A DNA stretch of 44,823 nucleotides from Acidobacteriota bacterium (GTDB taxonomy: Bacteria > Acidobacteriota > Vicinamibacteria > Vicinamibacterales > 2-12-FULL-66-21), in NCBI GenBank assembly GCA_003223835.1, contig QHWR01000120.1, positions 1-44,823 on the forward strand. The letters are read 5' to 3'. A program made the translations under genes and the position numbers. Under the pieces are notes generated by a model. The model searched no databases and was not told the DNA's origin. It saw only the letters and a program-made list of their open reading frames with translations. Below, one piece after another: positions 14,408 to 42,466 of this stretch. The stretch's first letter is position 1. Each line of letters starts with the position of its first letter.

Positions 14408-14467
14408 TCCTGGCGGCGAATCTCTGCTACATCAACTGCTGCATCTCACTTCAGAACGGAGGAGCGT

Positions 14468-15061: not shown

Positions 15062-15156
15062 CGGCCACCCGTCCAGGTCGACCTCTCAATTCTCTTCAAC
15101 ACAATTTTCGCAAGGCGCCACCGGATTCACGGTGCCGGTGCGAGCGGAGGATATCG

Positions 15157-15726: not shown

Positions 15727-15766
15727 CGCGCCTGTTCGTGCGGCCGACGCACAACCCTGCAATCAC

Positions 15767-17313: not shown

Positions 17314-17321
17314 GGAATCTT

Positions 17322-21902: not shown

Positions 21903-22798
21903 GCCTGCTCGCGTATGCTGTCGTGACGCCGGCCCGCAACGAGGCGCGGTTCCTCGAGCTGACGATCCGATCCGTCATCGCCCAGACCGCGCGTCCCCTC
22001 CGGTGGATCATCGTCAGCGATGGATCGACGGACGGCACCGACGAGATCGTGGCGAAGTACGCCGCCGATCATTCGTGGATCGAGCTGCTGCGGATGCCGG
22101 AGCGGCGCGAACGTCACTTCGCCGGAAAGGTGCACGCGTTCAATGCCGGCCTCGCGAAGCTGCGCGAGGTGCCGTACGACGCGATTGCGAGCCTGGACGC
22201 GGACATCTCGTTTGACGAGGAGTATTTCTCGTTCCTCCTGGGCAAGCTCGCGCAGGATCCGGCGCTCGGGCTCGTCGGCACGCCGTTCCAGGACAGCTTC
22301 ATCTACGACTACCGGTTCGTCAGCATCGAGCACGTCTCGGGCGCGTGTCAGATCTTCCGCCGCGCGTGCTTCGAGGATGTCGGCGGATACGTGCCCGTCA
22401 AGGGAGGCGGCATCGATCACATCGCCGTCATCAGCGCGCGGATGAAGGGATGGAAGACGAGAACCTTCACTGAAAAGGTCTGCCGGCACCACCGCGCGAT
22501 CGGATCGGCGCGTGCCGGAGGGCTCAGGGCGCGCTTCAAGGACGGTCTGACCGATTACGCCCTGGGCGGCCACCCGCTCTGGGAACTGTTCAGAACCGCG
22601 TATCAGATGACCCGCCGCCCGTGGATCGCGGGCGGCCTGCTGCTGCTCGCCGGCTTCGTCTGGGGCGCCGTTCGCGGCGGCGAGCGGCCCGTTTCCCGGG
22701 AGCTCGTCGAATTCCGCAGACGCGAGCAGATGCAGCGCCTGCGAACGTTCTTGTCCGGCCGCCGCGCGTCCTCGCTGGACGCCGCGGTGTCTTCCTGA
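21899..22798 (+). CDS. Glycosyltransferase family 2 (first)
   Basis: A 299-residue GT-A-fold glycosyltransferase that adds a sugar to the lipid-linked unit on the cytoplasmic face. The N-terminal VVTPARNEARFL and WIIVSDGSTDGTDEIV bind the nucleotide, and SLDADISFD is the metal-binding DxD region. CQIFRRACFEDVGGY and GGIDH follow, the usual acceptor loop. A hydrophobic segment near the end (IAGGLLLLAGFVWGAV) may attach it to the membrane. GTG 21899 is used because it overlaps the previous stop and has GAGG upstream. Donor and acceptor cannot be predicted. Confidence 0.9.
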   Translation: MSLLAYAVVTPARNEARFLELTIRSVIAQTARPLRWIIVSDGSTDGTDEIVAKYAADHSWIELLRMPERRERHFAGKVHAFNAGLAKLREVPYDAIASLDADISFDEEYFSFLLGKLAQDPALGLVGTPFQDSFIYDYRFVSIEHVSGACQIFRRACFEDVGGYVPVKGGGIDHIAVISARMKGWKTRTFTEKVCRHHRAIGSARAGGLRARFKDGLTDYALGGHPLWELFRTAYQMTRRPWIAGGLLLLAGFVWGAVRGGERPVSRELVEFRRREQMQRLRTFLSGRRASSLDAAVSS

Positions 22799-22824
22799 TC
22801 GCGCCACACGCCGCGCGCGCACTC

Positions 22825-23805
22825 ATGTTGCTGCGAGACCTCTATTACCACGTGAAACCCGCGGTGCCGCGCTCGCTGCGCCTCGCGGTGCGGCGCGCGC
22901 GCGCGCGCCGGCTGCGCCGCCGGTTCAGCGCCTCGTGGCCGATCGACGTCGCGTCGGGACGAACGCCCGCCGGCTGGCGCGGATGGCCGCGCGGCGAAGC
23001 GTTCGCGTTCGTGCTCACCCACGACGTCGAAGGCGCGATCGGGCTGGGCCGATGCCGCGCGCTGGCCGACATGGAGATGTCGCTCGGGTTCCGCTCCGCG
23101 TTCAATTTCGTCCCCGAGGGCGAGTACGAGGTTCCATCACAGCTCCGCCGCGCGCTCATGGCAGACGGATTCGAGATCGGCGTCCACGATCTGCACCACG
23201 ACGGCAGGCTGTACCGATCCCGCACGCGGTTCAGGACCGCGGCGCAAACGATCAATCGCTATCTCGCGTCGTGGGAATCGGTCGGGTTCCGATCCGCCTT
23301 CATGCTCCACAATCTGGCCTGGCTCCAGGATCTCGACGCGCTGTACGACGCCTCGACGTTCGACACCGATCCGTTCGAGCCGCAGCCGGACGGCGTCAAG
23401 ACGATTTTTCCGTTCTGGGTCGCGCGTCCCGATGGCACCGGCTACGTCGAGCTGCCCTACACGCTGCCGCAGGATTCGACGCTCTTTCTCATCCTCCAGG
23501 AGCCGACGATCGAGACGTGGAGGCGCAAGCTCGATTGGGTGGCCCGCCACGGCGGCCTCGCGCTGGTGAACGTCCATCCGGACTACATGAGTTTCGGACC
23601 GGCGAAGGGGCGCCACGAGTACGACGCGGGACTCTATCGCGCGCTGCTCCAGTACGTGCGCAACCGGTACGACGGCCGATGCTGGTTCGCGCTGCCGCGT
23701 GAAGTGGCCAATTACGTTCGCCGCTTCCAGGACGTCGAATCGGACGTCGAATCGGACAGGGAAGTCGGCATCGCCGCCGCCTCGGCGCAGGGCCCGCTCG
23801 CATGA
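22825..23805 (+). CDS. Polysaccharide deacetylase-like (CE4 / WbmS-type) protein
   Basis: A 326-residue protein with an NodB-like pattern: VLTHDVEG with Asp67 (usual TFDDG replaced by THDVE), FRSAFNFVPEGEY, and IGVHDLHHDG with His121 and His125 as likely metal ligands. NVHPDYM lies later. This variant resembles the WbmS/PelA-like branch found in O-antigen and capsule loci, not the classical chitin deacetylases. It has a strongly basic N-terminal region (residues 12-34) and no signal peptide, so it probably acts in the cytoplasm. The C-terminus contains a short DVESDVESD repeat. It ends in an ATGA overlap with the next GT2. Confidence 0.78.
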   Translation: MLLRDLYYHVKPAVPRSLRLAVRRARARRLRRRFSASWPIDVASGRTPAGWRGWPRGEAFAFVLTHDVEGAIGLGRCRALADMEMSLGFRSAFNFVPEGEYEVPSQLRRALMADGFEIGVHDLHHDGRLYRSRTRFRTAAQTINRYLASWESVGFRSAFMLHNLAWLQDLDALYDASTFDTDPFEPQPDGVKTIFPFWVARPDGTGYVELPYTLPQDSTLFLILQEPTIETWRRKLDWVARHGGLALVNVHPDYMSFGPAKGRHEYDAGLYRALLQYVRNRYDGRCWFALPREVANYVRRFQDVESDVESDREVGIAAASAQGPLA

Positions 23806-24707
23806 CTCCATCCGCGCCGCGCATTTCAGTCTGCATCTGCACTTACAAGCGGCCGCGCCTGCTCGAGCGTCTGCTGGATGCGTTGCGCGAGCAGGAGACC
23901 GGCGGCCGCTTCGATTATTCGATCGTCGTGGCCGACAACGATGCCCTCGAGTCCGCCGCCCCGGTCGTCCGCGGCTTCGCCGCGGCCTCGGGCATCCCGA
24001 CCGTCTACTGCGTGGAACCGCGCAGGAACATCGCGCTCACGCGCAACAAGGCAATCCAGCAGGCGACGGGCGACTTCATCGCCTTCATCGACGACGACGA
24101 GTTTCCGACGCGAACGTGGCTGAAGACGCTGTTCGATGCCTGCGGCGAATTTGCGGCGGACGGCGTGCTCGGACCGGTGAAGCCGCACTACGAGGAGCCG
24201 CCGCCGCGGTGGGTCGTGCGGGGCGGATTCTACGATCGGCCAGGCTATCCCACCGGATTCGTCATCGACTGGCGCAAGGGGCGCACGGGCAACGTGCTGC
24301 TCAAGCGGGACGTTTTGATCGCGCTCGATCCCCCGTTCCGCCCCGAGTTCCTGACCGGCGAAGACCAGGATTTCTTCAGACGCGCGATCGAACGCGGACA
24401 CGCGTTCGTCTGGTGCGCGGAGGCGGTCGCGTACGAGGCGGTGCCGCCGCTCCGCTGGAACCGCCGGTTCATGCTTCGCCGCGCGCTCCTCAGGGGAACG
24501 ATTTCGCTGCTCCACCCGACCGTCGGCGCACGGCACGTCGTCAGGTCGTTCGTCGCGGTTCCCGCCTACCTGGCGGCGCTGCCGTTCGCGTTGTGCGCGG
24601 GCCAGGGCGCCTTCATGACGTGCCTCGTCAAGCTGTGCGATCACACCGGCCGTCTGCTGGCGACCTGCGGCATCAAACCGATAGACGAGGCGTACGTCAC
24701 CGAGTAA
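23802..24707 (+). CDS. Glycosyltransferase family 2 (second)
   Basis: A 301-residue GT-A glycosyltransferase. SVCICTYKRPRLLERLL opens the chain, followed by SIVVADNDALES, the RNIALTRNKAIQQA helix, and the DxD region AFIDDDEFP. GEDQDFFRRAIERG is the typical C-terminal acceptor and catalytic-base region. A hydrophobic segment (AVPAYLAALPFALCAG) near residues 250-265 suggests membrane association. It is only distantly related to the first GT2 of the locus, so it likely adds a different sugar. The start overlaps the deacetylase stop. Fourteen bases separate it from the SDR gene. Confidence 0.9.
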   Translation: MTPSAPRISVCICTYKRPRLLERLLDALREQETGGRFDYSIVVADNDALESAAPVVRGFAAASGIPTVYCVEPRRNIALTRNKAIQQATGDFIAFIDDDEFPTRTWLKTLFDACGEFAADGVLGPVKPHYEEPPPRWVVRGGFYDRPGYPTGFVIDWRKGRTGNVLLKRDVLIALDPPFRPEFLTGEDQDFFRRAIERGHAFVWCAEAVAYEAVPPLRWNRRFMLRRALLRGTISLLHPTVGARHVVRSFVAVPAYLAALPFALCAGQGAFMTCLVKLCDHTGRLLATCGIKPIDEAYVTE

Positions 24708-24721
24708 CACCGCGCAATTTC

Positions 24722-25780
24722 ATGCTCATGGAGCTCGACGCTGACGTCATCGGAAAAGACGAGGTGATTCTCGTCACCGGCGCGACCGGATTCCTCGGCC
24801 CGACGGTCGTCCGGACCCTGCTCGATCGCGGATTCCGCCGAGTCCGCTGCCTGACGCGCACCGCGGGCCGCGAGACCCGTCTGCCGGACGTGGACGGAGC
24901 GGGGCACCGCGTCGAGGTCTTCAGAGGCAATCTCCTGTCACGGGACGATTGCGTGGCGGCGACACGGGACGCCGCCGTCATCCTGCACCTGGCGGCGGCC
25001 AGAGGCGAGAAATCGTTCCCCGACGCTTTCCTGAACTCCGTCGTGACGACGAGAAATCTGCTCGACGCAAGCCTTCGCCACCGGTGCCTGCGTCGGTTCG
25101 TGAACGTGAGTTCGCTGACCGTGTACTCGAACGCGCGCGGCTGGCGTGTGCCTCTCGACGAGTCCTGTCCCGTCGAACGCCAGCCCGCGCGCCGCTCCGA
25201 TCCGTACTGTTTCGCGAAGGTCAAGCAGGACGAGATCGTCACCGAGTACGGGCGTCGGTTCGGCGTGCCCTACGTGATCGTCAGGCCCGGTTACGTGTAC
25301 GGACGCGGCAACGAGGCGATCACCGGCCGCGTCGGCATCGGCACGTTCGGCGTGTTCCTGCACCTGGGAGGCACGAACACCATCCCGTTCACCTATGTCG
25401 ACAACTGCGCCGACGCGATCGTGCTGGCCGGCATCACCGGCGGCATCGACGGCGAAGTCTTCAACGTCGTGGACGACGACCTGCCGTCGAGCCGGCGGTT
25501 CCTGAGGCTCTACAAGCGGGCAGTCAGGCGGTTCGCGTCGATCTATGTGCCGCACGCGCTGAGTTATGCCGCGTGTGATCTGTGGGAGCGCTACGCCGAT
25601 TGGTCGGAGGGGCAGTTGCCGCCGGTCTTCAATCGTCAGGCGTGGCGCACCTACTGGAAGCGCACGCGGTACAGCAACGACAAAGTCAAGTTGCGGCTCG
25701 GCTGGATGCCGCGGGTCTCGACGGCCGAAGGCCTGCGGCGGTACTTCGAGAGCTGCCGGGAGAAGCTTCAACATGCTTAG
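24722..25780 (+). CDS. NAD(P)-dependent sugar epimerase/reductase (extended SDR)
   Basis: A 352-residue extended short-chain dehydrogenase. The Rossmann motif is VTGATGFLGPTVV near residue 18, with VILHLAAARG, VNVSSLTVYS and the active-site YCFAK (Tyr-x3-Lys). RPGYVYGRGNE and FTYVDNCADAIVLA follow. It most likely acts on nucleotide-linked or lipid-linked sugars as an epimerase, dehydratase or 4-reductase. ATG 24722 or 24728 could be the start. It overlaps the following dehydrogenase by 8 bases, so the two may act in sequence on one precursor. Intact. Confidence 0.88.
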   Translation: MLMELDADVIGKDEVILVTGATGFLGPTVVRTLLDRGFRRVRCLTRTAGRETRLPDVDGAGHRVEVFRGNLLSRDDCVAATRDAAVILHLAAARGEKSFPDAFLNSVVTTRNLLDASLRHRCLRRFVNVSSLTVYSNARGWRVPLDESCPVERQPARRSDPYCFAKVKQDEIVTEYGRRFGVPYVIVRPGYVYGRGNEAITGRVGIGTFGVFLHLGGTNTIPFTYVDNCADAIVLAGITGGIDGEVFNVVDDDLPSSRRFLRLYKRAVRRFASIYVPHALSYAACDLWERYADWSEGQLPPVFNRQAWRTYWKRTRYSNDKVKLRLGWMPRVSTAEGLRRYFESCREKLQHA

Positions 25781-26900
25781 GGCGGCGATCGTCGGCTGCG
25801 GCAAGATCGCGGACGCGCATGCGTCTCAGATCCGCCGCATCAAGGGATCCGAGATCGTCGGCGTATGCGATCGCGAGCCGTTGATGGCGAAGCAGCTGTG
25901 CGAACGGTTTTCAGTCGCGCGCTCCTTCAGCGACGTCGACGACCTGCTCGACAGCGCGCATCCCGACGTCGTGCACATCACGACGCCGCCCGCCAGTCAC
26001 TTCGACATCGCGCGGGCCTGCCTCGATCGCGGCTGTCACGTCTACATCGAGAAACCGTTCACCATCCGGGCCGGCGAGGCCGAGGCGCTCGTGGCGCTCG
26101 CCGCCAGCAACGATCTGAAGCTGACGGCAGGACACGACGATCAGTTCAGTCACGTCGCGAGACGAATGCGGGCGCTCGTCCGGAGCGGATATCTGGGCGG
26201 TCCCGCGCTGCACGTCGAGAGCACGTATTGCTACGATCTTTCGGAGCCCGGCTACGCACGCGCCCTCCTCGGCGATCGCCAGCATTGGGTCCGGCGGCTG
26301 CCGGGCGGCTTGCTCCAGAACGTCATCAGCCACGGCATCGCGCGGATTGCGGAGTTCTTCACGACCGACGCGCCGCAGGTGATCGCGCACGGGTTCGTCA
26401 GCCCTCCTCTGCGACGAATGGGCGAGCGGAAGATCGTCGACGAGCTTCGGGTGATTGTTTCCGAAGAGGATCGGCTGACCGCCTATTTCACGTTCTCCTC
26501 GCAGATGCGGCCGTCGGTGCACGAGCTGCGCGTCTACGGCCCCAGGAACGGATTGCTGCTCGATCAGGACCACGAGATCCTGCTTCGCCTGCGCGGCCGT
26601 CGATTCAAGAGCTACGGCGAGAAATTCTTCCCGCCGCTGCTCTTTGCCCGGCAGCATCTGAGCAACCTGGTCACGAACGCGAAGACCTTCCTCGCCCGCG
26701 ACTTCCACATGAAGTCGGGGATGAAGTACCTGATCGAAGCCTTCTATCAATCGATTCTGCACGGGACTGCCGTTCCAATCCCGTACGCCGAGATCCTGAG
26801 GACCGCCAGGATCATGGACGCGATCTTCGACCAGCTCGGCGACGCCACGATTCACCGGCCGGTCTTCACCAGGGAGCGACGCGCTTATGGACACGTGTGA
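25773..26900 (+). CDS. Gfo/Idh/MocA-family oxidoreductase (intact, third in window)
   Basis: A 375-residue NAD(P)-dependent sugar dehydrogenase. AAIVGCGKIADAHASQI forms the nucleotide site, HITTPPASHFDIA is the second strand-turn, and YIEKPFTI holds the active-site Lys. GGLLQNVISHGIARIAEFF supplies the usual His. The C-terminal third (FKSYGEKFFPPLLFARQHLSNLV onward) is longer than in the first Gfo of the window, suggesting a distinct subfamily. It overlaps the SDR gene upstream and the FAD oxidoreductase downstream (14 bases). It may oxidise a sugar ring carbon prior to amination. No aminotransferase is visible. Confidence 0.88.
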   Translation: MLRAAIVGCGKIADAHASQIRRIKGSEIVGVCDREPLMAKQLCERFSVARSFSDVDDLLDSAHPDVVHITTPPASHFDIARACLDRGCHVYIEKPFTIRAGEAEALVALAASNDLKLTAGHDDQFSHVARRMRALVRSGYLGGPALHVESTYCYDLSEPGYARALLGDRQHWVRRLPGGLLQNVISHGIARIAEFFTTDAPQVIAHGFVSPPLRRMGERKIVDELRVIVSEEDRLTAYFTFSSQMRPSVHELRVYGPRNGLLLDQDHEILLRLRGRRFKSYGEKFFPPLLFARQHLSNLVTNAKTFLARDFHMKSGMKYLIEAFYQSILHGTAVPIPYAEILRTARIMDAIFDQLGDATIHRPVFTRERRAYGHV

Positions 26901-28104
26901 TGTCGCGATCGTCGGCGCAGGTCCGTACGGGCTTGCGGCCGCCTCGCATCTCCAGCATGTCAAAGGGCTCGACGTCAGACTCTTCGGCCGGCCCATGACG
27001 TTCTGGGAGCGCCACATGCCCGAGGCGATGTTTCTTCGATCGCCCTGGGTGGCGTCCAGCATCGCGGACCCGAACAGACGCTTCAGCCTCGACGTGTACC
27101 GCACGGCGTACGGACTCGACGCGCTCGATTATCCCGTGCCGGTCCGCGACTTCATCCGGTACGGACGCTGGGTCCACGAACACCTCACCGTCGCCGCGGA
27201 ACCGTCTCAGGTCACGCGCCTCGATCTCGATCGCGGCCGTTACCGGCTTCTGCTCGACACCGGAGATGCAGTGGTCGCACGGCGCGTCATCGTCGCCGGC
27301 GGCATTCAGCCGTTTGCCTATCGTCCCGACATGTTCCGCGATCTCCCTGCCGCGCTCGTCACGCACACCTCCGAGCAGCGCGAGTTCACGCGATTCAAGG
27401 ACAAGAACGTGCTCGTCATCGGCGCGGGGCAGAGCGCGCTCGAAGCGGCCGGTTTCATGCGAGCCGCCGGCGCCGACGTCGAGGTCTTGATTCGCAATCC
27501 CACGGTGCACTGGCTCGGGAAGAAACGGCAATGGCTGCACGCGCCGCAGATTCGCTGGATGCTGTACGGCCGCGGCGACATCGGACCCGCCGGCGTGAGC
27601 CTGATCGTGCAGTATCCGAATCTCTTCCGCCGATTGCCGCGACGGCTTCAGGACTGGTGGGGCCCGCGGGCGGTCCGCCCCGCCGTCTTCGACAATCTGA
27701 TGGCCAGCACGGACCTGCGGATCCGCGGCGAGCGATTCCCCGTGCGCGCGGAGGTCGCGGGCGAGCGCGTCCGCGTGCATCTGAATGACGGCACGGATCG
27801 TCCCGTCGATCACGTCGTCCTCGGAACCGGCTATCGGATCGACGTCGCGCGCTACCCGTTCATGTCGCCGTCAATCCTCGATCGCGTACGTCGGGTCAAC
27901 GGATACCCGCTCCTCGACGCGGGGCTCGAGACGACGTCACCGGGGCTGCACGTCATCGGCGCGCCGGCGGCGTGGAGTTTCGGGCCGCTCATGCGCTTCG
28001 TGGCCGGGACCGAGTTCGCCGGTCCGGCGCTCGTCCGGCGCGTTCGGCGCGATGCGAAGCGCGCGTCCGTCGCCACGGGCGCGCTCGAGACGTCTCCGGC
28101 GTGA
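26887..28104 (+). CDS. FAD/NAD(P)-binding oxidoreductase (monooxygenase-like)
   Basis: A 405-residue flavoprotein of the NAD(P)-binding/L-lysine-monooxygenase-like type. The FAD site is AIVGAGPYGLAAASHL at residue 7. A second dinucleotide motif, VLVIGAGQSALEAAGF, lies near residue 178, and the late VVLGTGYRIDV is the family ATG-like box. Length and order fit flavin N- or Baeyer-Villiger-type monooxygenases and thioredoxin-reductase-like enzymes. The substrate is unknown; in this locus it could hydroxylate or oxidise an amine-bearing group. It ends the tightly overlapping part of the operon; a 97-base repeat-rich spacer follows. Confidence 0.83.
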   Translation: MDTCDVAIVGAGPYGLAAASHLQHVKGLDVRLFGRPMTFWERHMPEAMFLRSPWVASSIADPNRRFSLDVYRTAYGLDALDYPVPVRDFIRYGRWVHEHLTVAAEPSQVTRLDLDRGRYRLLLDTGDAVVARRVIVAGGIQPFAYRPDMFRDLPAALVTHTSEQREFTRFKDKNVLVIGAGQSALEAAGFMRAAGADVEVLIRNPTVHWLGKKRQWLHAPQIRWMLYGRGDIGPAGVSLIVQYPNLFRRLPRRLQDWWGPRAVRPAVFDNLMASTDLRIRGERFPVRAEVAGERVRVHLNDGTDRPVDHVVLGTGYRIDVARYPFMSPSILDRVRRVNGYPLLDAGLETTSPGLHVIGAPAAWSFGPLMRFVAGTEFAGPALVRRVRRDAKRASVATGALETSPA

Positions 28105-28108
28105 ACTC

Positions 28109-28189
28109 GCCACGGATAACACGGGCCGGGATGCCACGGAACACACAGACCGAAACCCCGGCCACGGATTACACGGAATACACGGACCG
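28109..28189. repeat. CACGGA-type degenerate direct repeats in an intergenic spacer
   Basis: The spacer between the FAD oxidoreductase and the ATP-grasp gene carries repeated cores of the form CCACGGATAACACGG, CCACGGAACACAC, CCACGGATTACACGG and AATACACGGA. The unit ACACGGA recurs about every 10-12 bases, close to one DNA helical turn, and the block is less GC-rich than its surroundings. From memory, similar ACACGGAT strings are scattered in intergenic spaces of Acidobacteria, Planctomycetes and other phyla, with unknown role. The spacer has no obvious terminator stem. Confidence 0.7.
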
Positions 28190-28201
28190 GAATTCCTGGA
28201 A

Positions 28202-29413
28202 ATGCTGATGCCCGCACGGTTCGAGGACAACCAGAAGACGTCCGGAATACGACCGACGGGAGCCGTCGTCGTCGGAGGGGACTACCAGGGGCTCGGGATC
28301 GTTCGCAGTCTCGGGCGTCAGGGCGTGCCCGTGTGCGTCGTCGACGACGAGTGCTCGATCGCGCGGTACTCGCGCTACGCCACGCACGCGATCCGGACGT
28401 CGAGCCTGCGCGACGAGCGGCAGACCGTTGACATCCTGCTCGACGTCGGCCGGCGTCTCGGGCTGCAGGGATGGGTGTTGTATCCGACGCGAGACGAAAC
28501 CGTGGCGGCGTTTGCGAGGTACCGGCCGCTGCTCACCGAGCTGTTCCGCGTGCCGACGCCGGCGTGGAACACGATCCAGTGGCTCTGGGACAAGCGGAAT
28601 ACGTACAGTCTCGCCGGCCAGCTGGGGATTCCGACGCCACGAACGTTCTGGCCACGTACTGTCGAGGAGTTGGATCGGCTCGCGTTCGAGGCGCCGGTCG
28701 CCATCAAGCCCGCCATCAAGGAGCACTTCATTTACGCGACGAAGGCCAAGGCGTGGAGAGCGAACACGCCGGCCGAGCGCCGCGATCTCTTTCAGCGTGC
28801 CGCCGCCTACGTCGAACCCGGCGAAGTGATGATCCAGGATCTCATTCCGGGAAACGGCGACAGCCAGTTCGCGTACTCCGCGTTTTTCAAGAATGGCCAC
28901 GCGATCGGAAGCATGGTCGCTCGACGCACCCGCCAGCATCCGCCGGAGTTCGGCCGCGCCAGCACGTTCGTGGAGACGATCGAGCTGCCGATCCTCGAAA
29001 CGCTGTCGCACCGGTTTCTGCGCGCGATCGACTACTACGGTCTCGTCGAGCTGGAATACAAATTCGACGCGCGCGACGGCCAGTACAAGTTGCTCGACGT
29101 CAACGGCCGCACCTGGGGTTATCACACGTTGGGGGCGCGCGCCGGCGTCGACTTTCCGTACCTGCTGTACGCGGATCAAATCGGCGAAACGCTCGAGGCG
29201 CGGCGCGGACGCGCGGGAATCCGATGGATCCGGCTCGCGACGGACGTGCCGACCGCGATTGTCGAAATGATCGGCGGCCGTCTGGGCTGGCGGGAGTACA
29301 TCCGGTCGCTGACGAACGTTCACGTCGAAGCCGTCTTCAAGCGCGGCGACCTTCTTCCGGGACTCATGGAACTGGCGCTCATTCCCTACCTCTCGCTCAA
29401 GCGAGGCTTCTGA
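28202..29413 (+). CDS. ATP-grasp ligase-like protein (carboxylate-amine ligase type)
   Basis: A 403-residue ATP-grasp enzyme. The N-terminal pre-ATP-grasp domain begins AVVVGGDYQGLGIVRSL. The ATP-grasp core shows PVAIKPAIKEHF (the phosphate-binding Lys strand), VMIQDLIPGNGDSQF, RRTRQHPPEFG, YYGLVELEYKFD and KLLDVNGRTWGYH with the metal-binding acidic and Asn residues. Such enzymes join a carboxylate to an amine through an acyl phosphate. The following gene has a homologous C-terminal domain, so this is half of a tandem pair. ATG 28202 or 28208 could be the start. Substrate unknown; amide-linked decoration of a uronic acid is one guess. Confidence 0.85.
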   Translation: MLMPARFEDNQKTSGIRPTGAVVVGGDYQGLGIVRSLGRQGVPVCVVDDECSIARYSRYATHAIRTSSLRDERQTVDILLDVGRRLGLQGWVLYPTRDETVAAFARYRPLLTELFRVPTPAWNTIQWLWDKRNTYSLAGQLGIPTPRTFWPRTVEELDRLAFEAPVAIKPAIKEHFIYATKAKAWRANTPAERRDLFQRAAAYVEPGEVMIQDLIPGNGDSQFAYSAFFKNGHAIGSMVARRTRQHPPEFGRASTFVETIELPILETLSHRFLRAIDYYGLVELEYKFDARDGQYKLLDVNGRTWGYHTLGARAGVDFPYLLYADQIGETLEARRGRAGIRWIRLATDVPTAIVEMIGGRLGWREYIRSLTNVHVEAVFKRGDLLPGLMELALIPYLSLKRGF

Positions 29414-29416
29414 TTC

Positions 29417-31480
29417 ATGGGGCTCTCTCTGGCCATCGGCGTCGCGCTCGCGCTGCTCACGGCGGTGCCGCTCGCGTGGAAATGGCAGCTTGGCATCTTC
29501 CGGACGTGTCTGGTGGTCGCCGTCCTCGGAGCGATCAGCGGCGTTGCCGTGACGGCGGCGGGATCCGTCGTGCCGCTCGGCGCCACGGTATCGGCGGCGC
29601 TCATCTGGCTGCTGACGATCGCCGCCGCGTGCTCGCTCCTGGCGTACCGCTTCTATCGCGATCCCGATCGAACGCCGCCACGGCGAAGCGACGCGATCGT
29701 CAGCCCCGCCGACGGCGCCGTCGTGTACGTCCGGCGGTCGCGCGCAGGCGCGCTGCCGGTCTCCGACAAGCAGGGCCGCGCGTACACGCTGACCGAGCTG
29801 ACGCGAACGCCGCTCGAAGCCGACGACGCGATCGTCATCGGAATCGGGATGAACTTCGCCGACGTCCACGTCAACCGGGCGCCGATCGAGGGGCGCGTGG
29901 TGTGCCGCCGCCATTTCCACGGTCTCTTTGGCTCGCTGAGAAATCCGGAAATGGTGTTCGAGAACGAGCGCGCCACGACGGTGATCGAAGGTCAGGGGTT
30001 CCAGGTGGCGGTCGTGCAAATCGCGTCACGGCTCGTCCGCCAGATTGTTCTTTACGTGCGCGAAGGGCAGGGCATCGCGCTCGGGCAGCGGTTGGGCGCC
30101 ATCCGGTTCGGCTCGCAGGTCGATCTCGTTCTGCCCGTGCGTCCCGGCCTGCGGATCACCACGCAGGTCGGGGAGCGGCTGCGCGCCGGCGAGTCGGTCG
30201 TCGGCGTGCTGGAGCAGCCGCGCACGCCGATCGCGCACGTCGCGAGCGGCGGGTCGTCGCAGTCCGAAGGGGCGCTCGTGATCGGCGAACATGTCCGGGG
30301 GCTCGCGCTCGTTCGAAGCCTCGGGCGCCGGGGGATTCGGGTGTGGACGCTCGAGCCGCCCGGCCAGGCGATGGCTTCCCGCTCGCGATACAGCCGTCGA
30401 ACCCTTCCGTGGCCCGAGGGCGGCGAGCGCGAACAACTCGATTACCTGTTCGGCCTGGCGGCACGTCATCAGCTCGAGGGATGGGCGCTCTTTCCCGCGA
30501 GCGACGAAACGACCGCGCTTTGTTCGCGGCATCACGCGGCGCTGTCCGCGGTGTTCCGCATGACGGTCCCGCCCTGGGAGTCGATGGCATGGGCGTACGA
30601 CAAACGCCTCACCCATCGGCGCGCCAGCGAAGTCGGCGTCGCGCACCCCAAAACGTTTTGCGTGGCGACGTCCGAGGAGCTGTTCAGGCTTCCTTGTGCG
30701 TTTCCGGTCGTCCTCAAGCCGGCGTACAAGCGCGAGGAGAACCGATTCACGCGCGACAGGGCCTGGCGCGCGAACGACCGCGCCGCGCTGATCGCGCGTT
30801 TCGAAGAGGCCTGCACCTGCGTGGCGCCGGACGTCGTCATGATTCAGGAGTTGATCCCCGGCGACGGCCGCACGCAGTTCTCGTACGCGGCGTTGTGCGT
30901 CGACGGCCACCCGATCGCGTCGCTGACCGCGCGGCGCACGCGCCAGTATCCGGTGGAGTTCGGCCATTCGAGCTCGTTCGTCGAGACCGTCGCGCAGCCT
31001 GCCGTCGAGCACGCCGCGCGCCGGCTGCTGGAGGGGAGCCGCTATACGGGTCTCGTCGAAGTCGAATTCAAGTACGACGTCCGCGATCGACGGTTCAAGC
31101 TGCTCGACGTCAACCCTCGGGTCTGGACCTGGCACGCGATCGGGCGCCGCGCCGGCGTCGATTTTCCGTATCTGTTGTGGCGAACGATTCACGGCGCGCG
31201 GATTCCGGAAGTGCGCGGATGCTCCGGGGTGCGGTGGGTCCGGATGAGCACGGATGCCCTGGCCGCATGCACCGCCCTCGTCCGAGGCGAGCTGTCGCTG
31301 TCCACGTACCTCCGCTCGCTGGCGCCGCCGATCGAGCTTGCCACCTTTGCGTTCGACGATCCGCTGCCGGGAGTACTGAGCGTCCCGCATGCGGTGTCGT
31401 CGAGGTTGAAGCAAATCTTCGGGGCCGCCGGCGATCCTGTGCCGGCGCCCATCGAACGCTCGCTGCAGAAACCCGCCTGA
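29417..31480 (+). CDS. Fusion: phosphatidylserine decarboxylase-like domain plus ATP-grasp domain
   Basis: A 687-residue two-part protein. Residues 1-80 hold about three hydrophobic helices. Residues 80-265 are phosphatidylserine-decarboxylase-like: YRFYRDPDR, SPADGAVV, MNFADVHVNRAPIEG (Asp149, His151), NPEMVFENERAT, and IRFGSQVDLVLP, where Gly232-Ser233 is the expected self-cleavage site that makes the pyruvoyl group. Typical short PSDs have FGSRVD, so Gln replaces Arg. A Gly/Ser linker leads to a full ATP-grasp half (286-687) homologous to the preceding gene, with VVLKPAYKREENRF, MIQELIPGDGRTQF, ARRTRQYPVEFG and LLDVNPRVWTWH. If self-cleaved, the alpha chain would carry the ATP-grasp part. 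I know of no described function for this combination. Confidence 0.85.
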   Translation: MGLSLAIGVALALLTAVPLAWKWQLGIFRTCLVVAVLGAISGVAVTAAGSVVPLGATVSAALIWLLTIAAACSLLAYRFYRDPDRTPPRRSDAIVSPADGAVVYVRRSRAGALPVSDKQGRAYTLTELTRTPLEADDAIVIGIGMNFADVHVNRAPIEGRVVCRRHFHGLFGSLRNPEMVFENERATTVIEGQGFQVAVVQIASRLVRQIVLYVREGQGIALGQRLGAIRFGSQVDLVLPVRPGLRITTQVGERLRAGESVVGVLEQPRTPIAHVASGGSSQSEGALVIGEHVRGLALVRSLGRRGIRVWTLEPPGQAMASRSRYSRRTLPWPEGGEREQLDYLFGLAARHQLEGWALFPASDETTALCSRHHAALSAVFRMTVPPWESMAWAYDKRLTHRRASEVGVAHPKTFCVATSEELFRLPCAFPVVLKPAYKREENRFTRDRAWRANDRAALIARFEEACTCVAPDVVMIQELIPGDGRTQFSYAALCVDGHPIASLTARRTRQYPVEFGHSSSFVETVAQPAVEHAARRLLEGSRYTGLVEVEFKYDVRDRRFKLLDVNPRVWTWHAIGRRAGVDFPYLLWRTIHGARIPEVRGCSGVRWVRMSTDALAACTALVRGELSLSTYLRSLAPPIELATFAFDDPLPGVLSVPHAVSSRLKQIFGAAGDPVPAPIERSLQKPA

Positions 31481-31481
31481 G

Positions 31482-32264
31482 ATGCGCACCATGCCCGGAT
31501 GCCTGATCGTCAACGCCGACGACTGGGGCCGGAATATCGAAACGACGGACCGGATTGCCGAGTGCGCCGTCGCCGGCGGCGTGTCGGCTGTGAGCGCGAT
31601 GGTCTTCATGGCGGATTCCGAACGCGCCGCGGCCATTGCACGCGAACGTGGCATCGAGGCGGGTCTTCACCTGAATTTCACGACGCCGTTCACGGCGACC
31701 GGCCTGTCCGCCGACCTTGTCCGTTGTCAGCAGGTCGTCGGCCGCTCGCTCCGGCGTCATCGGCTCGCGCCGTTCGTCTTTCATCCAGGGCTGATGCGAT
31801 CGTTCGAATACCTCGTCGCGGCGCAGCGCGACGAGTTCCGCCGTCTGTACGGAGCATATCCGCGCCGTCTCGACGGCCATCATCACATGCACCTCTGCGC
31901 GAACGTGCTGCTCGGGCGGTTGATGCCCGCCGGAACGTTCGTACGACGGAACTTCTGCTTCGACGCCGGCGAGAAGAGCCTGGTCAACCGCGTGTATCGG
32001 CGCTCGGTGGATCGCGTCCTCGCGCGCCGGCACCGGCTCACCGATCTGTTCTTTTCATTGGCGCCGCTCGATCCGCCGTCGCGCATCGAGCGGATCTGCT
32101 CGCTCGCGTCGCGCCTCGTCGTCGAGCTGGAGACGCATCCCGTCGAGCGGGACGAGTACCGATTTCTCCGTGGCGGCGAGCTGCTCCGCTATCTCGGTGG
32201 CAGCCGCATCGTGCCCCCCTCGGCGATCCATCCGCAAGAGCCGCTCACGCTGGCCGCGTCATGA
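31482..32264 (+). CDS. ChbG/HpnK-family (YdjC-like) deacetylase
   Basis: A 260-residue carbohydrate deacetylase of the ChbG/HpnK family, which removes acetyl groups from N-acetyl sugars using a metal ion. Motifs are LIVNADDWG (Asp13, Asp14), EAGLHLNF (His63) and RRLDGHHHMHL (Asp131, His133 to His137). FSLAPLDPP and VELETHPVERDEY are late family features, giving the usual His. There is no signal peptide, so it should act on cytoplasmic precursors. HpnK in hopanoid pathways is the best-known relative, but here the context is polysaccharide. It starts 1 base after the fusion protein's stop. Confidence 0.9.
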   Translation: MRTMPGCLIVNADDWGRNIETTDRIAECAVAGGVSAVSAMVFMADSERAAAIARERGIEAGLHLNFTTPFTATGLSADLVRCQQVVGRSLRRHRLAPFVFHPGLMRSFEYLVAAQRDEFRRLYGAYPRRLDGHHHMHLCANVLLGRLMPAGTFVRRNFCFDAGEKSLVNRVYRRSVDRVLARRHRLTDLFFSLAPLDPPSRIERICSLASRLVVELETHPVERDEYRFLRGGELLRYLGGSRIVPPSAIHPQEPLTLAAS

Positions 32265-33190
32265 CACACAGCAGGAAAGAAATCGACATCGGCGGCAAGC
32301 TGACCCACGTTGACGTCATCACGGCCGCCGGCACCGACGTGATCGTGAGAGGGACCGCGATCAAGGTGGCCAGGACCGAAGGTGACGGCTACGAGGCTAT
32401 CGAGGATCCGGCGTCGTTGATCGACGAGCTACGCCGTCCGCGCGGCACGCCCGATATTTTCACGTTTGCCGAAGTCAATCCGGACGCGGGGCGGCGGCAC
32501 CCGTATCCGCTCGAATGGGAAAGCATCGCCGCGCTGCCGATCTCGACCTTCGATCACTGGTGGCACAAGCAGATTCCGCAGGAAACCCGCACCGGCGTGA
32601 GGAAGGCCGAGAAGAAGGGCGTGACCGTCCGGGTCGTGGAGTACACGGACGACCTCGTGAAAGGCATTCAGCGCATCTACGACGAATCCCCCGTCCGTCA
32701 GGGGAAGCCCTTCTGGCACTACGGCAGGGATTTCGACACGCTGAAAAAGATCCACGCGACCTTTCTCGAGTCGAGCGATTTCATCGGCGCCTACGACGAG
32801 GGGGAGCTCGTCGGATTCATGAAGCTGGTGTACTCCAAATATTGTGCCGGGACGATGAACATTCTCGCCAGGATCGATCGTCGCGACAAGCGAATCATGA
32901 ATGCGCTCGTTGCGAAAGCCGTTGACGTCTGCGCGGCCAGGCGGGTCCCGTATCTCACGTATTGCATGTGGAGCACGGGCGGCCTCGGCGAATTCAAGAC
33001 CAGGAACGGCTTCCAAAAAGTCGATCTGCCTCGGTACTACGTCCCCTTGACGCGGACAGGCAGGATCGCGGTCGCGCTGAAGCTGCATCGGGGCCTTCGA
33101 GGCATGCTGCCGCCGGCCGTGAAAGATCATCTCGTGCACCTGCGATCGAAGTGGTACTCGGTCAGGTCGCTGGCGCTGAAGCACTCCTGA
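32261..33190 (+). CDS. GNAT/FemAB-like acyltransferase-type protein
   Basis: A 309-residue cytoplasmic protein that I do not recognise as a named family. Its central region has GNAT-like features: SDFIGAYDEGELVGFMKLVYSKYCAG, MNILARIDRRDKRIMNALVAKAVD and YLTYCMWSTGGLGEFKTRNGFQKVDLPRYYVPL, the typical end of an acyl-CoA N-acyltransferase fold. A long N-terminal segment (residues 1-110) precedes it. In this locus it may acylate an amino group freed by the ChbG-type deacetylase whose stop its ATG overlaps. That is inference. FemAB-like peptidyl transfer is an alternative. Confidence 0.65.
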   Translation: MTHSRKEIDIGGKLTHVDVITAAGTDVIVRGTAIKVARTEGDGYEAIEDPASLIDELRRPRGTPDIFTFAEVNPDAGRRHPYPLEWESIAALPISTFDHWWHKQIPQETRTGVRKAEKKGVTVRVVEYTDDLVKGIQRIYDESPVRQGKPFWHYGRDFDTLKKIHATFLESSDFIGAYDEGELVGFMKLVYSKYCAGTMNILARIDRRDKRIMNALVAKAVDVCAARRVPYLTYCMWSTGGLGEFKTRNGFQKVDLPRYYVPLTRTGRIAVALKLHRGLRGMLPPAVKDHLVHLRSKWYSVRSLALKHS

Positions 33191-33205
33191 AATACCAGAA
33201 CGAAC

Positions 33206-35059
33206 ATGCCGGGAATCGTGGGACTGGTGACGCAGATGCCGGCCGCGCGCGCGCAACTGGAACTCGCGCGCATGGTCGAAGCGATCGATCACGAGCCGTT
33301 TTACGACACGGGCGCGTGGTGCGACGAGCGCGCGGGCGTGTACGTCGGGTGGACGGCCCGGAAGGGCCCCTTCTCCGGCGCGATGCCCCTGGCGAACGAG
33401 CGCGGCGACGTCGTTCTCGTGTTTTCAGGCGAGGAGTTCTCGCGCGATCACGCCGGCCGGGAAGGCCCCGGCTATCTCGTGCGCGCGGCGGAAAAGGACT
33501 CCGCGTTTCCGGCGAGCTTGAACGGACGATTCCATGGCGTGTTGATCGATCGGAGGCGCGGAACCTCGACGCTCTTCAACGACCGGTACGGAATGCACCG
33601 GCTCTACGTCCATCAATCCCGCGACGCCTTCTATTTTGCTGCCGAAGCGAAGGCGATCCTCGCCGTGCGCCCGGAGCTTCGCACGCTCGACGCGCGAGGG
33701 CTCGGCGAATTCCTCACCTGCGGCTGCGTCCTCGAGAATCGCTCGCTGTTCGAGAACGTCGGCGTCCTGCCGGCCGGCGCGGCGTGGGCCTCCAGGAACG
33801 GTTCGCTCGAACGGAAGGCGAGCTACTTCACACCCCGGGAGTGGGAGCAGCAGACCATCCTCGAGCCGGAGGCGTACTACCGCGAGGTGCGGCGGGTCTT
33901 CTCGACCAGCCTGCCTCGATACTTCGAAGCGCGCGAGCCGATTGCGTTGTCGCTGACCGGCGGGCTCGACACTCGGATGATCATGGCCTGGCACAAGCCC
34001 GCGGCCGGATCGCTGCCCTGTTACACCTTCGGCGGGATGTTCCGCGATTGTCATGACGTGCGTGTCGCGCGCGAAGTCGCGCGGACGTGCGGTCAGCCTC
34101 ACGAGGTCATTCCCGTCGCCGAGGACTTTCTTCTGCGGTTCCCGGAGTACGCCGAACGCGCCGTCTACCTGACGGACGGCTGCGTGGACGTGAGCCGCTC
34201 GCCCGACCTGTACGTCAACGAGAAGGCGCGCGCCATCGCGCCGATCCGCATGACCGGCAATTACGGGGGAGAGGTGCTTCGCCGGGTCCGCGCGTTCAAG
34301 CCCGTGCCGCCGCTGCCGGGCTTGTTCGACGCCGGCGTCCTCCCGCACGTGGACAAGGCATCGGCGACGTACGGGTCGCTGCTGCAGGAACATCCGCTGT
34401 CGTTCGCGGTGTTCCGCCAGGCGCCGTGGCACCACTACGGCCTGCTGGCGCTCGAGCAGACGCAGCTCTCGCTGCGGTCGCCGTACCTCGACAACGACTT
34501 CGTCCGGACGATCTTCCGCGCGCCGCAATCGACGCTCGCGAACAACGACGTCTGTCTGCGGCTGATTGGCGACGGCGATCAACGTCTCCGCCGCATTCGC
34601 ACCGACCGGGGGCTGGCCGGTGCCGAAGGATTCTCGTCGTCGGTGTCGCGGCAGGTGCTCGAGTTCACGTTCAAAGCGGAGTACGCGTACGACTACGGCA
34701 TGCCCCAATGGATCGCGGGCATCGATCACGCCTTCTCGCCGCTGCGGCTCGAGCGGCTCTTCCTCGGACGCCACAAGTTCTATCACTTCCGCGTCTGGTA
34801 CCGTGACGCGCTTGCGGGTTACGTTCGCGACATGCTGCTCGATTCCCGATCGCTCGCGAGGCCGTACGTCCAGCGCAAGCGTGTCGAGGCGATCGTGCAG
34901 GCTCACACGACCGGCACCCGAAACTACACCACGGCCATCCACAAGCTCCTGACGCTGGAGCTTCTGCACCGCCTCTTCCTCGACCGCCCATCCGTTTCAG
35001 AGACTCACATTCCTGCTGTTCAGGAACTTCACCCAGTGTCCGTCCCGGGGGGACGATGA
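33206..35059 (+). CDS. Asparagine-synthase-like amidotransferase lacking the N-terminal Cys
   Basis: A 617-residue class II glutamine amidotransferase/asparagine synthetase homologue. The N-terminal glutaminase-like domain (MPGIVGLV, GRFHGVLIDRRRG, FNDRYGMHRLY, FAAEAKAIL) has Pro2 where the catalytic Cys2 is required, so it cannot hydrolyse glutamine in the normal way. The synthetase domain has a PP-loop SLTGGLDTR (residues 249-256), YTFGG, RMTGNYGGEVLRR and LRSPYLDNDF. Such proteins may use free ammonia or another amine as nucleophile, or form an amide on the polymer. Not obviously a housekeeping AsnB. It starts 16 bases after the GNAT-like gene. Confidence 0.85.
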   Translation: MPGIVGLVTQMPAARAQLELARMVEAIDHEPFYDTGAWCDERAGVYVGWTARKGPFSGAMPLANERGDVVLVFSGEEFSRDHAGREGPGYLVRAAEKDSAFPASLNGRFHGVLIDRRRGTSTLFNDRYGMHRLYVHQSRDAFYFAAEAKAILAVRPELRTLDARGLGEFLTCGCVLENRSLFENVGVLPAGAAWASRNGSLERKASYFTPREWEQQTILEPEAYYREVRRVFSTSLPRYFEAREPIALSLTGGLDTRMIMAWHKPAAGSLPCYTFGGMFRDCHDVRVAREVARTCGQPHEVIPVAEDFLLRFPEYAERAVYLTDGCVDVSRSPDLYVNEKARAIAPIRMTGNYGGEVLRRVRAFKPVPPLPGLFDAGVLPHVDKASATYGSLLQEHPLSFAVFRQAPWHHYGLLALEQTQLSLRSPYLDNDFVRTIFRAPQSTLANNDVCLRLIGDGDQRLRRIRTDRGLAGAEGFSSSVSRQVLEFTFKAEYAYDYGMPQWIAGIDHAFSPLRLERLFLGRHKFYHFRVWYRDALAGYVRDMLLDSRSLARPYVQRKRVEAIVQAHTTGTRNYTTAIHKLLTLELLHRLFLDRPSVSETHIPAVQELHPVSVPGGR

Positions 35060-35060
35060 G

Positions 35061-38000
35061 ATGTTGAAGACTGCCCTGAGGCTCGCCGCGATCTCGTTCG
35101 TCGTCTTTCCGGTTTCGGTGTCGGCTCAACCCGTTCAGTTCAGTACGCATAGAGATTACCCGAGCGGCTACGGTCCGGCGTCGATCGCGACAGGCGATGT
35201 CAACGGCGACGGGATCCGGGACCTCGCGGTCGCGAATCGGTTGGACGACAGCGTCGCCGTTCTCCTGGGCAACGCCGACGGCAGCTTCCAGCGTCCGGTG
35301 TCGGTGTATCTGGGGCCAAACAGCAGTCCTTGCTCCGTCGGCATCGGAGATTTCAACCGGGACGGCCGCCTGGATCTCGCGGTCGCCAATTCAGGAGCGA
35401 ACACCGTCTCGATTCTTCCGGGCAACGGCGACGGCACGTTCCAGCCGGCGTTGTCGCTTGCGGCCGGGACGGGCCCGGCGTCGCTGGCCGTGGCGGACTT
35501 CAACGGTGACGGCAAGTCAGACCTCGCCGTTGCCAACACCGGATCGAACGATCTCTCCATCATCCTCGGCAACGGGGACGGAACATTCCAGCCCGCACAG
35601 CGCTGGGTGACGGACGCGGGCCCGTCGTTCGTCGCGGTCGCGGATTTCAATCGCGACACCAAACCCGATCTGGCCGTCGTCAATTCGGGTTCCGGGACGA
35701 TCTCGGTGCTCCTGGGTAATGGCGACGGCACGTTCCAGGCGCCCTCGACGTTCGGTGCGGGCGGCACGCACGTCGGGTCGATTGCCGTCGGCGACTTCAA
35801 CGGCGATGGGGCGCAGGATCTCGCCGTGACGAACACCGATGCGAACACGGTGTCGGTGCTCGCGGGCAACGGCGACGGCACGTTCCAGCCGTTGCGCGAC
35901 TTCGACGCGGGGCAGGGAGGACCTCGCGATCGCCAACGGCGGCAGCGCCGGCATGGACGGCGCGAGCACGGTCTCGGTACTCGCCGGCGCCGGCGACGGC
36001 ACCTTCGGCGCGCCGCACGCGTTTGCCGTGGGCAGCGTCTCCAGCGCGCTCGCGGCGGGGAACTTCAACGGAGATGCGATCTCGGATCTCGCCGTCGCCA
36101 ACAGTTATTCGACGACCGTGTCGGTGTTGCTGGGAACGAGCGTTGGAAGTTTTCCGGCCGCGTTGACGCTTGACGTCGGGCTCAACCCCGAGGGGCTCAC
36201 GACCGCGGATTTCAACGGCGACGGCCATCCGGATCTTGCCGTGAGCAACGCGGGCTCCGACAGCGTTTCCGTGATGCTGGGAAACGGCGACGGCACCTTT
36301 CAACCGCCGCTGACGTTCCCAGCCGGTGCGGCCCCCGTGTTCGTGACGACGGCCGACGTCAATCGCGACGGCAAGCCCGATCTGATCTGCGCCAACTACG
36401 GCGCGCACGACTATTACTCCGCGACGGTCGCGAGCACGGTCTCGGTCCTGCTCGGCAACGGTGACGGAACGTTCGGGTTGCCGCGGACGTTCCAGGCCGG
36501 CCCCGGTCCGCATGGCATCGCGGTCGGCGACTTCAATCGCGATGGCATCCCGGACCTTGCCGTCGCGGACCTCGGTCCCTACCCGAACCGCGCCACGACC
36601 GTGGCCGTGTTGATCGGCGCGGGCGATGGCACGTTCGGTGCGCCCCGGTTCTTCGACGCCGGCCACGCGCTGACCGGCGTCGCCGTCGGCGACTTCAACC
36701 GCGACGGCGTGGACGACCTGGCGCTCAGCAGCGGCGGCGATGCGACGGTGTCGGTCCTCCTCGGCAACGGCAACGGGACCTTCGCGCCGAAGGCGAGCTT
36801 CGGCGCGGGCAGCTCGCCGAAGTCGGTCGCGGTCGGCGACTTCAACGGCGATCAAATCCCGGACCTCGCCGTCGCCGACCACTGGTCCGACACGGTATCG
36901 GTGCTGCTCGGCAACGGCGACGGGACGTTCCAGCCACGGCGCACGTTCGAGACCGGCCGCAATCCCGCGTGGATCAGCGTCGCGGATCTCGACGGCGACG
37001 GCGTGCAGGACCTGGCGATCGCGAATTGGTTTGCGACGACGGTTTCCGTGCTGTTGGGCAACGGGGATGGCACGTTCCGCTATGGGGTCCAGTTCGGCGC
37101 CGGCGCGGCGCCGGAGAAGGTCGTCGTGGCCGACTTCAACGAGGACGGCCAGCCGGATCTCGCGGTCGCGAATTATTTCGGCCGGAGCGTCTCCGTGCTG
37201 ATCGACACGACGTACACGGCGCGCGTCGCGACGCCGTCGTTCAGTCCGGCCGGCGGGACGTACGTCGGCGGGCTGACCGTCACGATCGGCGTGACGACCC
37301 AGGGTGCGGTGATTCACTTCACGATCGACGGCAGCGCGCCGACGCTGGCGTCCCCCGTGTACGCGGGTCCGCTGCCGATCGGGAAGACGACGATCGTCCG
37401 CGCGGCGGCCTTCGCGAGCGGGATGACCGCCAGCGAGGTCGCGCAAGCCGCCTACGTCATCAAAGCGTTCGCTCCGACGTTCACGCCTTCGTCCGGCACG
37501 TATGTTGAGTCGGTCACCGTCACGCTTGCCAGCGCGACAGGCGGCGCGACGATCCGTTACACGACGGATGGCAGTGCGCCGTCAGCATCGTCGCCCGCCT
37601 ACACCGCTCCGATCGCGCTCGCGCGCAACACGACCGTCCGCGCGATCGCCGTCGCGAGCGGGATGGCGGCGAGCGACGAAGCCGTCGCCGCTTACCACGT
37701 GCGCGTGGCCTCGCCGGCCTTCAGCGCGCCTGGCGGGACGTACGATCAGCCGCAGACCATCTCCATCCGCACGACCACCGCCGGCGCGACGATCTACTTC
37801 ACGACCGACGGCAGCGCGCCGACGACGTCGTCCACGGTGTACACGAGTCCGATCTCCATCCCGCGGACGATGACCGTGCGCGCGATCGCGGTGGCCGGCG
37901 GCATGGACGACAGCGCCGTGTCCGGCGCGACCTACACCTTGCAGGCGGCGACGCCCACGTTCAATCCGCCCGCCGGAAATTACCTGCTGCCGCAGTTCGT

Positions 38001-38193
38001 CGCGATCGCCAGCGCCAGCCCGGGCGTGACGATCTACTACACCACCGATGGCAGCACGCCCACGACGTCGTCGACCCGGTACACGGGACCGATTCTCGTC
38101 GTCATGACGACCACGATCCGCGCGATCGCGGTCGCCCCCGGCTGGTCGCCGAGCGCCGTGGCGGCCGCCAGGTACACATTCCTCGTTCAGTAA
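35061..38193 (+). pseudogene. Secreted FG-GAP/chitobiase-C repeat protein, frameshifted near 35915 (4 C-terminal repeats)
   Basis: A very large exported protein: signal peptide to VSVSAQ, then about 14 VCBS/FG-GAP units (DFNxDGxxDLAVAN, SVLLGNGDGTFQ, a Ca-binding pattern that builds beta-propeller blades), then 4 chitobiase/beta-hexosaminidase C-terminal-type repeats (ATPxFxPAGGTY, YTTDGSTPTTSS, TTIRAIAVA). The frame changes between repeats 5 and 6: frame one ends GTFQPLRDFDAGQG and frame two resumes REDLAIAN. About 15 residues (xxVAVGDFNGDG) are missing, so a 3n+2 deletion fits. Both halves are otherwise clean. ATG 35061 lies 1 base after the previous stop. The role may be surface binding. 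Confidence 0.8.
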
Positions 38194-38270
38194 ACGCGTT
38201 GTAACCCGGTCGAAGCACTTCAGGGTCGTCGTCGCACGTCCTGAGCCTTCTCCAACTCCAGGGGGACCAG

Positions 38271-42443: not shown

Positions 42444-42466
42444 GCTGGCAGGTCTCTGGGATCCTG

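What the first reader, a model, noticed from the sequence alone, without database searches (positions are those of the whole stretch)
29417..31480. Phosphatidylserine decarboxylase domain fused to an ATP-grasp ligase, beside a free ATP-grasp paralogue
Seen: a PSD-like proenzyme (NFADVHVNR, and FGS at residues 231-233 as the predicted self-cleavage and pyruvoyl site) continues without a stop into an ATP-grasp domain homologous to the neighbouring gene at 28202-29413. Known: PSD makes phosphatidylethanolamine, and ATP-grasp enzymes join carboxylates to amines. Inference: a ligase could attach serine or another carboxyl-bearing group to a polymer precursor or lipid, and the pyruvoyl domain could then decarboxylate it to leave an ethanolamine-type amine. 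Auto-cleavage would split the chain and leave the ligase with the alpha subunit. I know of no described pathway of this form.
Basis: partly seen in the sequence, partly recalled or inferred. Interest (0 to 1): 0.78.

Follow-up and report, generated by a model that had tools for sequence, protein, structure and literature searches.

The report
Polysaccharide-locus decarboxylase fused to ATP-grasp ligase
A bacterium carries, inside a gene cluster for a surface polysaccharide, a distinct relative of the enzyme that makes the membrane lipid phosphatidylethanolamine, fused to an ATP-using ligase; the same decarboxylase subfamily recurs beside such ligases and a sugar deacetylase in three phyla, which points to an undescribed decarboxylation step in building a glycan.

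Summary
Confirmed: window 29417-31480 is one 687-aa ORF with membrane helices, a PSD domain (PF02666, E 1.9e-39; catalytic residues intact) and an ATP-grasp domain 42% identical to the free ATP-grasp at 28202-29413. It is not a chimera: G162/L029, another phylum, has the same fusion (64-68%) after the same free ligase (78%). The PSD belongs to a separate clade (100/100). All six members sit beside ATP-grasp genes in polysaccharide-type loci with a CE4-type or CE4-like deacetylase nearby (three phyla, five lineages); canonical PSDs of the window's order adjoin pssA (19 of 19). The usual partner is the free ligase type (AG-B); fusion to the other type (AG-A) is derived. Pocket positions fixed in canonical PSDs differ. 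The assembly shows no other PSD, but its pssA is cut at a contig end exactly where relatives carry psd, and G162 has both, so a housekeeping role is unlikely. Best model (inference): deacetylate a membrane-bound glycan precursor, ligate an amino acid, decarboxylate to expose a new amine, re-acylate. New variant of known enzyme families.

The parts
29417..30262 (+). PSD-family domain with N-terminal membrane helices (residues 1-282 of the fusion)
   Evidence: PF02666 E=1.9e-39; hydrophobic stretches at about 1-80; catalytic D99, H151, G232, S233 invariant in the clade
30107..30115 (+). FGS codons 231-233: predicted self-cleavage and pyruvoyl site, followed by Gln234 (Arg in all 30 canonical PSDs compared)
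30263..31480 (+). ATP-grasp domain, type AG-A (residues 283-687 of the fusion)
28202..29413 (+). Free ATP-grasp, type AG-B, the conserved partner of this PSD subfamily
26887..28104 (+). FAD/NAD(P)H oxidoreductase of the flavin monooxygenase / amine N-hydroxylase fold; recurrently paired with these ATP-grasps
22825..23805 (+). CE4-type polysaccharide deacetylase-like protein (THD, HxxxH, HPDY motifs)
   Evidence: 3rxz polysaccharide deacetylase, E 5.6e-8
31482..32264 (+). YdjC/ChbG-like deacetylase
   Evidence: PF04794 E=1.3e-19
32261..33190 (+). GNAT/LPG-synthase-like acyl- or aminoacyltransferase
   Evidence: weak PF09924 and PF00583
33206..35059 (+). Asparagine-synthase-like amidotransferase
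   Evidence: PF00733 E=9.5e-15
11332..44823 (+). Surrounding Wzx/Wzy-type polysaccharide locus: export protein 11332, Wzz 11979, tyrosine kinase 13628, priming glycosylphosphotransferase 16222, DUF354 18359, WecB 19507, GT2s 21899 and 23802, epimerase 24722, Gfo/Idh 25773, Wzy 42467, Wzx 43786 (cut by the window end)

Best explanation
The fusion is a polysaccharide-tailoring enzyme. Its first half is a distinct subfamily of the phosphatidylserine decarboxylase family, recruited to act on a membrane-bound glycan precursor rather than on phosphatidylserine. Proposed order (inference): a CE4-type deacetylase frees a hexosamine amine on an undecaprenyl-linked intermediate; the free ATP-grasp AG-B attaches an amino acid so that its alpha-amine and alpha-carboxylate stay free (for example through a side-chain carboxylate); the self-cleaved pyruvoyl domain removes the alpha-carboxylate and exposes a new primary amine; the fused ATP-grasp AG-A acylates that amine, possibly after oxidation by the FAD enzyme. 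Fusing PSD to AG-A would pass the new amine directly to the next ligase. Shown: the fusion, the intact catalytic residues, the separate clade, the recurrent gene module, the polysaccharide setting. Inferred: substrate, order and product.
For: All six clade members lie within about 1.6 kb of an ATP-grasp gene, at 1-5 nt for AG-B in L114, L115, the window and L091, in loci with glycosyltransferases and, in most, Wzy, Wzz or a priming transferase. A deacetylase-like gene directly precedes AG in L114, L115 and, by motif only, L089, and is near in L092, L091, L086. Clade support 100/100 against 30 other PSDs; fixed pocket differences with retained D90/H144/S254 equivalents. Fusion repeated in G162, which also has a canonical PSD. 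PSD-less versions of the same cluster exist (G055/L086; G162 C231/L084), so PSD is an add-on step. Membrane helices fit a membrane-bound substrate.
Against: No substrate, product or polymer structure is known. The FAD/AG-A pair also occurs where no polysaccharide genes were recognised nearby (L026: DUF2336, NAD-kinase-like, TonB receptor). FAD enzymes and AG-A are absent beside PSD in L114, L115 and L089, so the full five-enzyme order cannot be general. Side-chain coupling by AG-B is only one of several chemically allowed options. The PSD half was modelled with low confidence.
Confidence: 0.42

Rival explanations
1. It is simply the genome's phosphatidylserine decarboxylase, moved next to polysaccharide genes and accidentally fused.
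For: It is the only PF02666 match in the held assembly; catalytic residues are intact.
Against: The assembly's pssA is cut at the first base of contig C304, exactly where 19 of 19 checked relatives have psd adjoining pssA (overlapping by about 10 nt in the two nearest). G162 has both a canonical PSD and the fusion. The domain lies outside the clade of the order's PSDs and differs at pocket positions fixed in all of them.
Confidence: 0.12
2. The PSD half makes phosphatidylethanolamine (or a PE-like lipid) locally, and the ATP-grasp domains use its amine as acceptor, giving an amide-linked lipid or lipid anchor for the polymer.
For: PSD family; membrane helices; a pyruvoyl domain fused to a carboxylate-amine ligase fits a decarboxylate-then-ligate order. 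Ser at the E. coli Ser166 position (a phosphate contact in PMC7952604) is invariant in the clade.
Against: The E. coli Tyr137 phosphate contact (Phe in all 30 canonical PSDs here) is Gly, Ser, Val or Glu in the clade. No lipid-handling gene was recognised beside it. It does not explain the deacetylase.
Confidence: 0.22
3. The enzyme decarboxylates a free or carrier-bound amino acid to a small amine, which the FAD enzyme oxidises and an ATP-grasp couples to a uronic acid or other carboxylate of the polymer; logic as in hydroxamate siderophores (decarboxylase, N-hydroxylase, ligase).
For: The FAD enzyme's best fold matches are diamine and amino-acid N-hydroxylases (DesB, putrescine N-hydroxylase, DfoA); an asparagine-synthase-like amidotransferase is in the locus.
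Against: The fold is shared with thioredoxin reductases and other flavin monooxygenases, and the model has mean pLDDT 71. FAD is absent beside PSD in three of six loci. Membrane helices are not expected for a small soluble substrate.
Confidence: 0.17
4. The PSD half is catalytically dead and only anchors the ligase to the membrane.
For: Pocket residues changed; membrane helices present.
Against: All catalytic and self-cleavage residues are invariant in six divergent members.
Confidence: 0.05

Closest known systems
Phosphatidylserine/archaetidylserine decarboxylase, short type (PF02666; NF003685, TIGR00164)
   Same: Domain, N-terminal hydrophobic helices, SPADG, VHVNRAP and GS motifs, catalytic residues
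   Different: Separate clade; FGSQ instead of FGSR; A to L, G to S and R to Q changes fixed; a KGxxYxLxEL-type element seen in E. coli Psd but not in the short type; scores below every NCBIfam PSD equivalog cut-off; beside ATP-grasp and not pssA; fused to ATP-grasp in two genomes
E. coli Psd (long type)
   Same: Catalytic Asp90, His144, Ser254 and the KG-x-x-Y-x-L segment align
   Different: Lacks Tyr137 and His147 equivalents; different size; fused ligase
ATP-grasp ligases of the PRK12767/2pn1 and L-amino-acid ligase (BL00235, YwfE) type
   Same: Fold and ATP-grasp signature
   Different: Only about 13-17% identity to the solved structures; substrate unknown; fusion to a pyruvoyl decarboxylase
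Sugar N-deacetylation followed by amino-acid ligation, as in bacillithiol or mycothiol synthesis (own knowledge)
   Same: Deacetylase beside a ligase; a distant AG relative in Priestia lies beside a PIG-L deacetylase and GT4
   Different: Membrane polysaccharide locus; CE4-type deacetylase; ATP-grasp ligase; added decarboxylase

Membership tests
PSD family (PF02666) | Match to the family model over nearly its whole length | tested here: met
   Positions 4-197 of 198, E 1.9e-39
PSD family (PF02666) | Catalytic Asp, His and Gly-Ser self-cleavage site | tested here: met
   D90, H144, G253, S254 equivalents invariant in six members
PSD family (PF02666) | Self-cleavage and pyruvoyl formation | not testable with these tools
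   Needs protein
Canonical phosphatidylserine decarboxylase (housekeeping) | Reaches a curated equivalog cut-off | tested here: not met
   Best NF003685 154.7 bits against 183; TIGR00164 148.4 against 230
Canonical phosphatidylserine decarboxylase (housekeeping) | Groups with the pssA-linked PSDs of its own order | tested here: not met
   Separate clade, 100/100
Canonical phosphatidylserine decarboxylase (housekeeping) | Only PSD in the genome | tested here: inconclusive
   No other match, but the psd-pssA site is cut by a contig end
ATP-grasp superfamily | ATP-grasp fold with conserved Lys and acidic/Asn metal site (LKP; DVNPR) | tested here: met
L-amino-acid ligase | Ligates amino acids | not testable with these tools
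   Fold similarity only (3vot, 3wo1)
Amine N-hydroxylating flavin monooxygenase (gene 26887-28104) | Two-dinucleotide-binding fold with ATGY motif | tested here: met
Amine N-hydroxylating flavin monooxygenase (gene 26887-28104) | N-hydroxylase substrate site | not tested
   Model confidence too low to assign

The most novel reading that the evidence does not exclude
A dedicated pyruvoyl decarboxylase subfamily tailors lipid-linked polysaccharide intermediates: an amino acid is ligated to a deacetylated sugar, decarboxylated in place to create a new amine, and re-acylated by a ligase fused to the decarboxylase. This would be a decarboxylative route to amide substituents in bacterial glycans.
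Probability: 0.35. Interest if true: 0.78.

Novelty: new variant of a known kind. Interest (0 to 1): 0.62.

Why it matters
PSD is normally read as proof of phosphatidylethanolamine synthesis. A recurrent subfamily with its own pocket residues, tied to ATP-grasp ligases and a deacetylase in polysaccharide loci, would mean that PSD annotations in such loci are wrong about the substrate. It would also mean that bacteria use pyruvoyl decarboxylation to decorate surface glycans, a step for which I found no described example in the searches made.

Tried and rejected
Assembly chimera: rejected, same fusion in G162. Housekeeping PSD: judged unlikely. Serine amide then decarboxylation: rejected on mechanism. 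G1468 and G1305 hits as further clade members: rejected, both beside pssA-like genes with about 34% identity. L066, a short PSD fragment first suspected to be a clade member: its sequence has the canonical AGLIARRIVC and FGSR signature. PSD profile against PDB sequences: no match. Literature: no paper found that joins PSD and ATP-grasp in this sense. First joint alignment misplaced PSD-only rows, so the fusion was folded without them and its PSD half is poorly modelled.

Full report
OBSERVATION. The ORF 29417-31480 (+) encodes 687 aa without a stop. Residues 75-262 match PF02666 (E 1.9e-39), and residues from about 285 match PRK12767-type ATP-grasp proteins and 2pn1. FGS is at 231-233. The neighbour 28202-29413 is 42% identical to the ATP-grasp half and its stop is 3 nt from the fusion's ATG. 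AlphaFold gives the ATP-grasp half high confidence (mostly 90-97) and a clear ATP-grasp fold, with biotin carboxylase, 2pn1 and L-amino-acid ligases among the matches. The PSD half is below 50, probably because only two rows covered it.

NOT A CHIMERA. VBOL01000027.1 (L029; whole contig L091; genome G162, titled Nitrospirae) has the same fusion, in frame across the junction at 64% over residues 1-482, then a frameshift, then 68% to residue 668. It is preceded by a 78% homologue of the free ligase, within a largely syntenic locus.

THE PSD IS A SEPARATE SUBFAMILY. Six members were found: window, L091 (G162), L092 (G163, Solirubrobacteraceae MAG), L089 (G233, same phylum as the window), L114 (G939) and L115 (G1156). 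G939 and G1156 share an order and lie in the phylum of G163. The members therefore fall in three phyla and five lineages. They form one side of a branch with 100/100 support against 30 other PSDs. In the window's order, 19 of 19 checked PSDs adjoin pssA (L003-L021). Across the six, the residues equivalent to E. coli D90, H144, G253 and S254 are invariant. The Tyr137 position is G/S/G/V/G/E (Phe in 30 of 30 canonical), 167 is Leu (Ala in 30 of 30), and 255 is Gln (Arg in 30 of 30). Tyr137, Ser166 and Val167 contact the substrate phosphate in E. coli Psd (PMC7952604). Canonical short PSDs also lack Tyr137, so this suggests, but does not prove, another substrate. The clade also has a KGxxYxLxEL-type element that aligns with KGHNYSLEALL of E. 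coli Psd and is missing from the short type. No NCBIfam PSD cut-off is reached.

GENE MODULE. In L115 the order is Wzy, GT2, GT4-hexapeptide, polysaccharide deacetylase, AG-B, PSD, B12-radical SAM, with 1-4 nt junctions from the deacetylase on. L114 has Wzz, Wzy, GT2, GT4, hexapeptide, deacetylase, AG-B, PSD. L092 has deacetylase-like, AG-A, FAD, PSD, FAD, AG-B beside a priming transferase and glycosyltransferases. L089 has GT4, a protein that looks deacetylase-like by motif (no Pfam match), AG, PSD, DUF354, methyltransferase, WecB. L091 and the window have FAD, AG-B and then the fusion in the same kind of locus. The ligase tree has two types. AG-B (free gene of the window, L091, L092_B; L114 and L115 nearby) is PSD-linked. 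AG-A (the fused domain) lies in a 16-member clade, most of which has no PSD. Fusion of PSD to AG-A is therefore most simply a later step. AG-A with an FAD enzyme also occurs in a Bradyrhizobium plasmid polysaccharide locus with sugar transferase, aminotransferase, glycosyltransferases and two asnB genes. Two PSD-less versions of the window's cluster exist (G055/L086; G162 C231/L084).

HOW COMMON. P0001 was searched in 162 genomes of the order, 396 of the phylum, 296 of G162's phylum and 397 of G163's phylum, and the PSD profile in 289 genomes of the phylum of L032 (Bradyrhizobium, Pseudomonadota) and two small groups. No seventh member was found. Only the best few candidates per genome were scored in the larger searches.

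IS IT THE HOUSEKEEPING ENZYME? The held assembly (93% complete, 400 contigs) has no other PSD. Its pssA begins at base 1 of contig C304 without its N-terminus; in the two nearest relatives examined psd overlaps the start of pssA by about 10 nt. The canonical psd is therefore most simply missing to the gap. G162 carries both. The question stays open for the window's genome until it is closed.

MECHANISM. Pyruvoyl decarboxylases form a Schiff base with a free alpha-amine and release the adjacent carboxylate (established; PMC7952604). Three orders can: coupling through a side chain and then decarboxylation; decarboxylation first and then ligation of the amine; or PE as the amine. The recurrent deacetylase-ligase-PSD neighbourhood and the membrane helices favour the first, on an undecaprenyl-linked sugar, and the fusion to a second ligase would then re-acylate the new amine. 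This is inference. The FAD enzyme resembles N-hydroxylases in fold, but the model is of moderate quality and the fold is widespread.

VERDICT. A real, recurrent, apparently undescribed enzyme combination: a new subfamily and a new fusion of known families. The setting is well supported; the chemistry is open.

Noticed in passing
window 28111-28186: The gap between the FAD gene and the free ATP-grasp holds four close copies of CACGGANNACACGGA (6 matches in the window with up to 2 mismatches against 2.2 expected); looks like a small dispersed repeat.
   Followed up: partly
window 35953-42443: Two large FG-GAP / CHB_HEX_C repeat proteins (746 and 1390 aa) inside the polysaccharide locus, the second with a 240-bp tandem repeat at 40585-41645.
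   Followed up: partly
L091 2117-4027: In G162 the GT2 and the CE4-type deacetylase, separate genes in the window, are one 636-aa ORF.
   Followed up: no
L115 7171-8625: A B12-binding radical SAM gene overlaps the end of the PSD gene in G1156; a possible further tailoring step.
   Followed up: no
window 6292-7173: Sulfotransferase (PF13469; weak NoeE similarity) upstream of the locus.
   Followed up: no
L026 6630-9224: FAD/ATP-grasp pair without recognised polysaccharide genes nearby; a TonB receptor gene ends about 1.5 kb downstream on the other strand.
   Followed up: no
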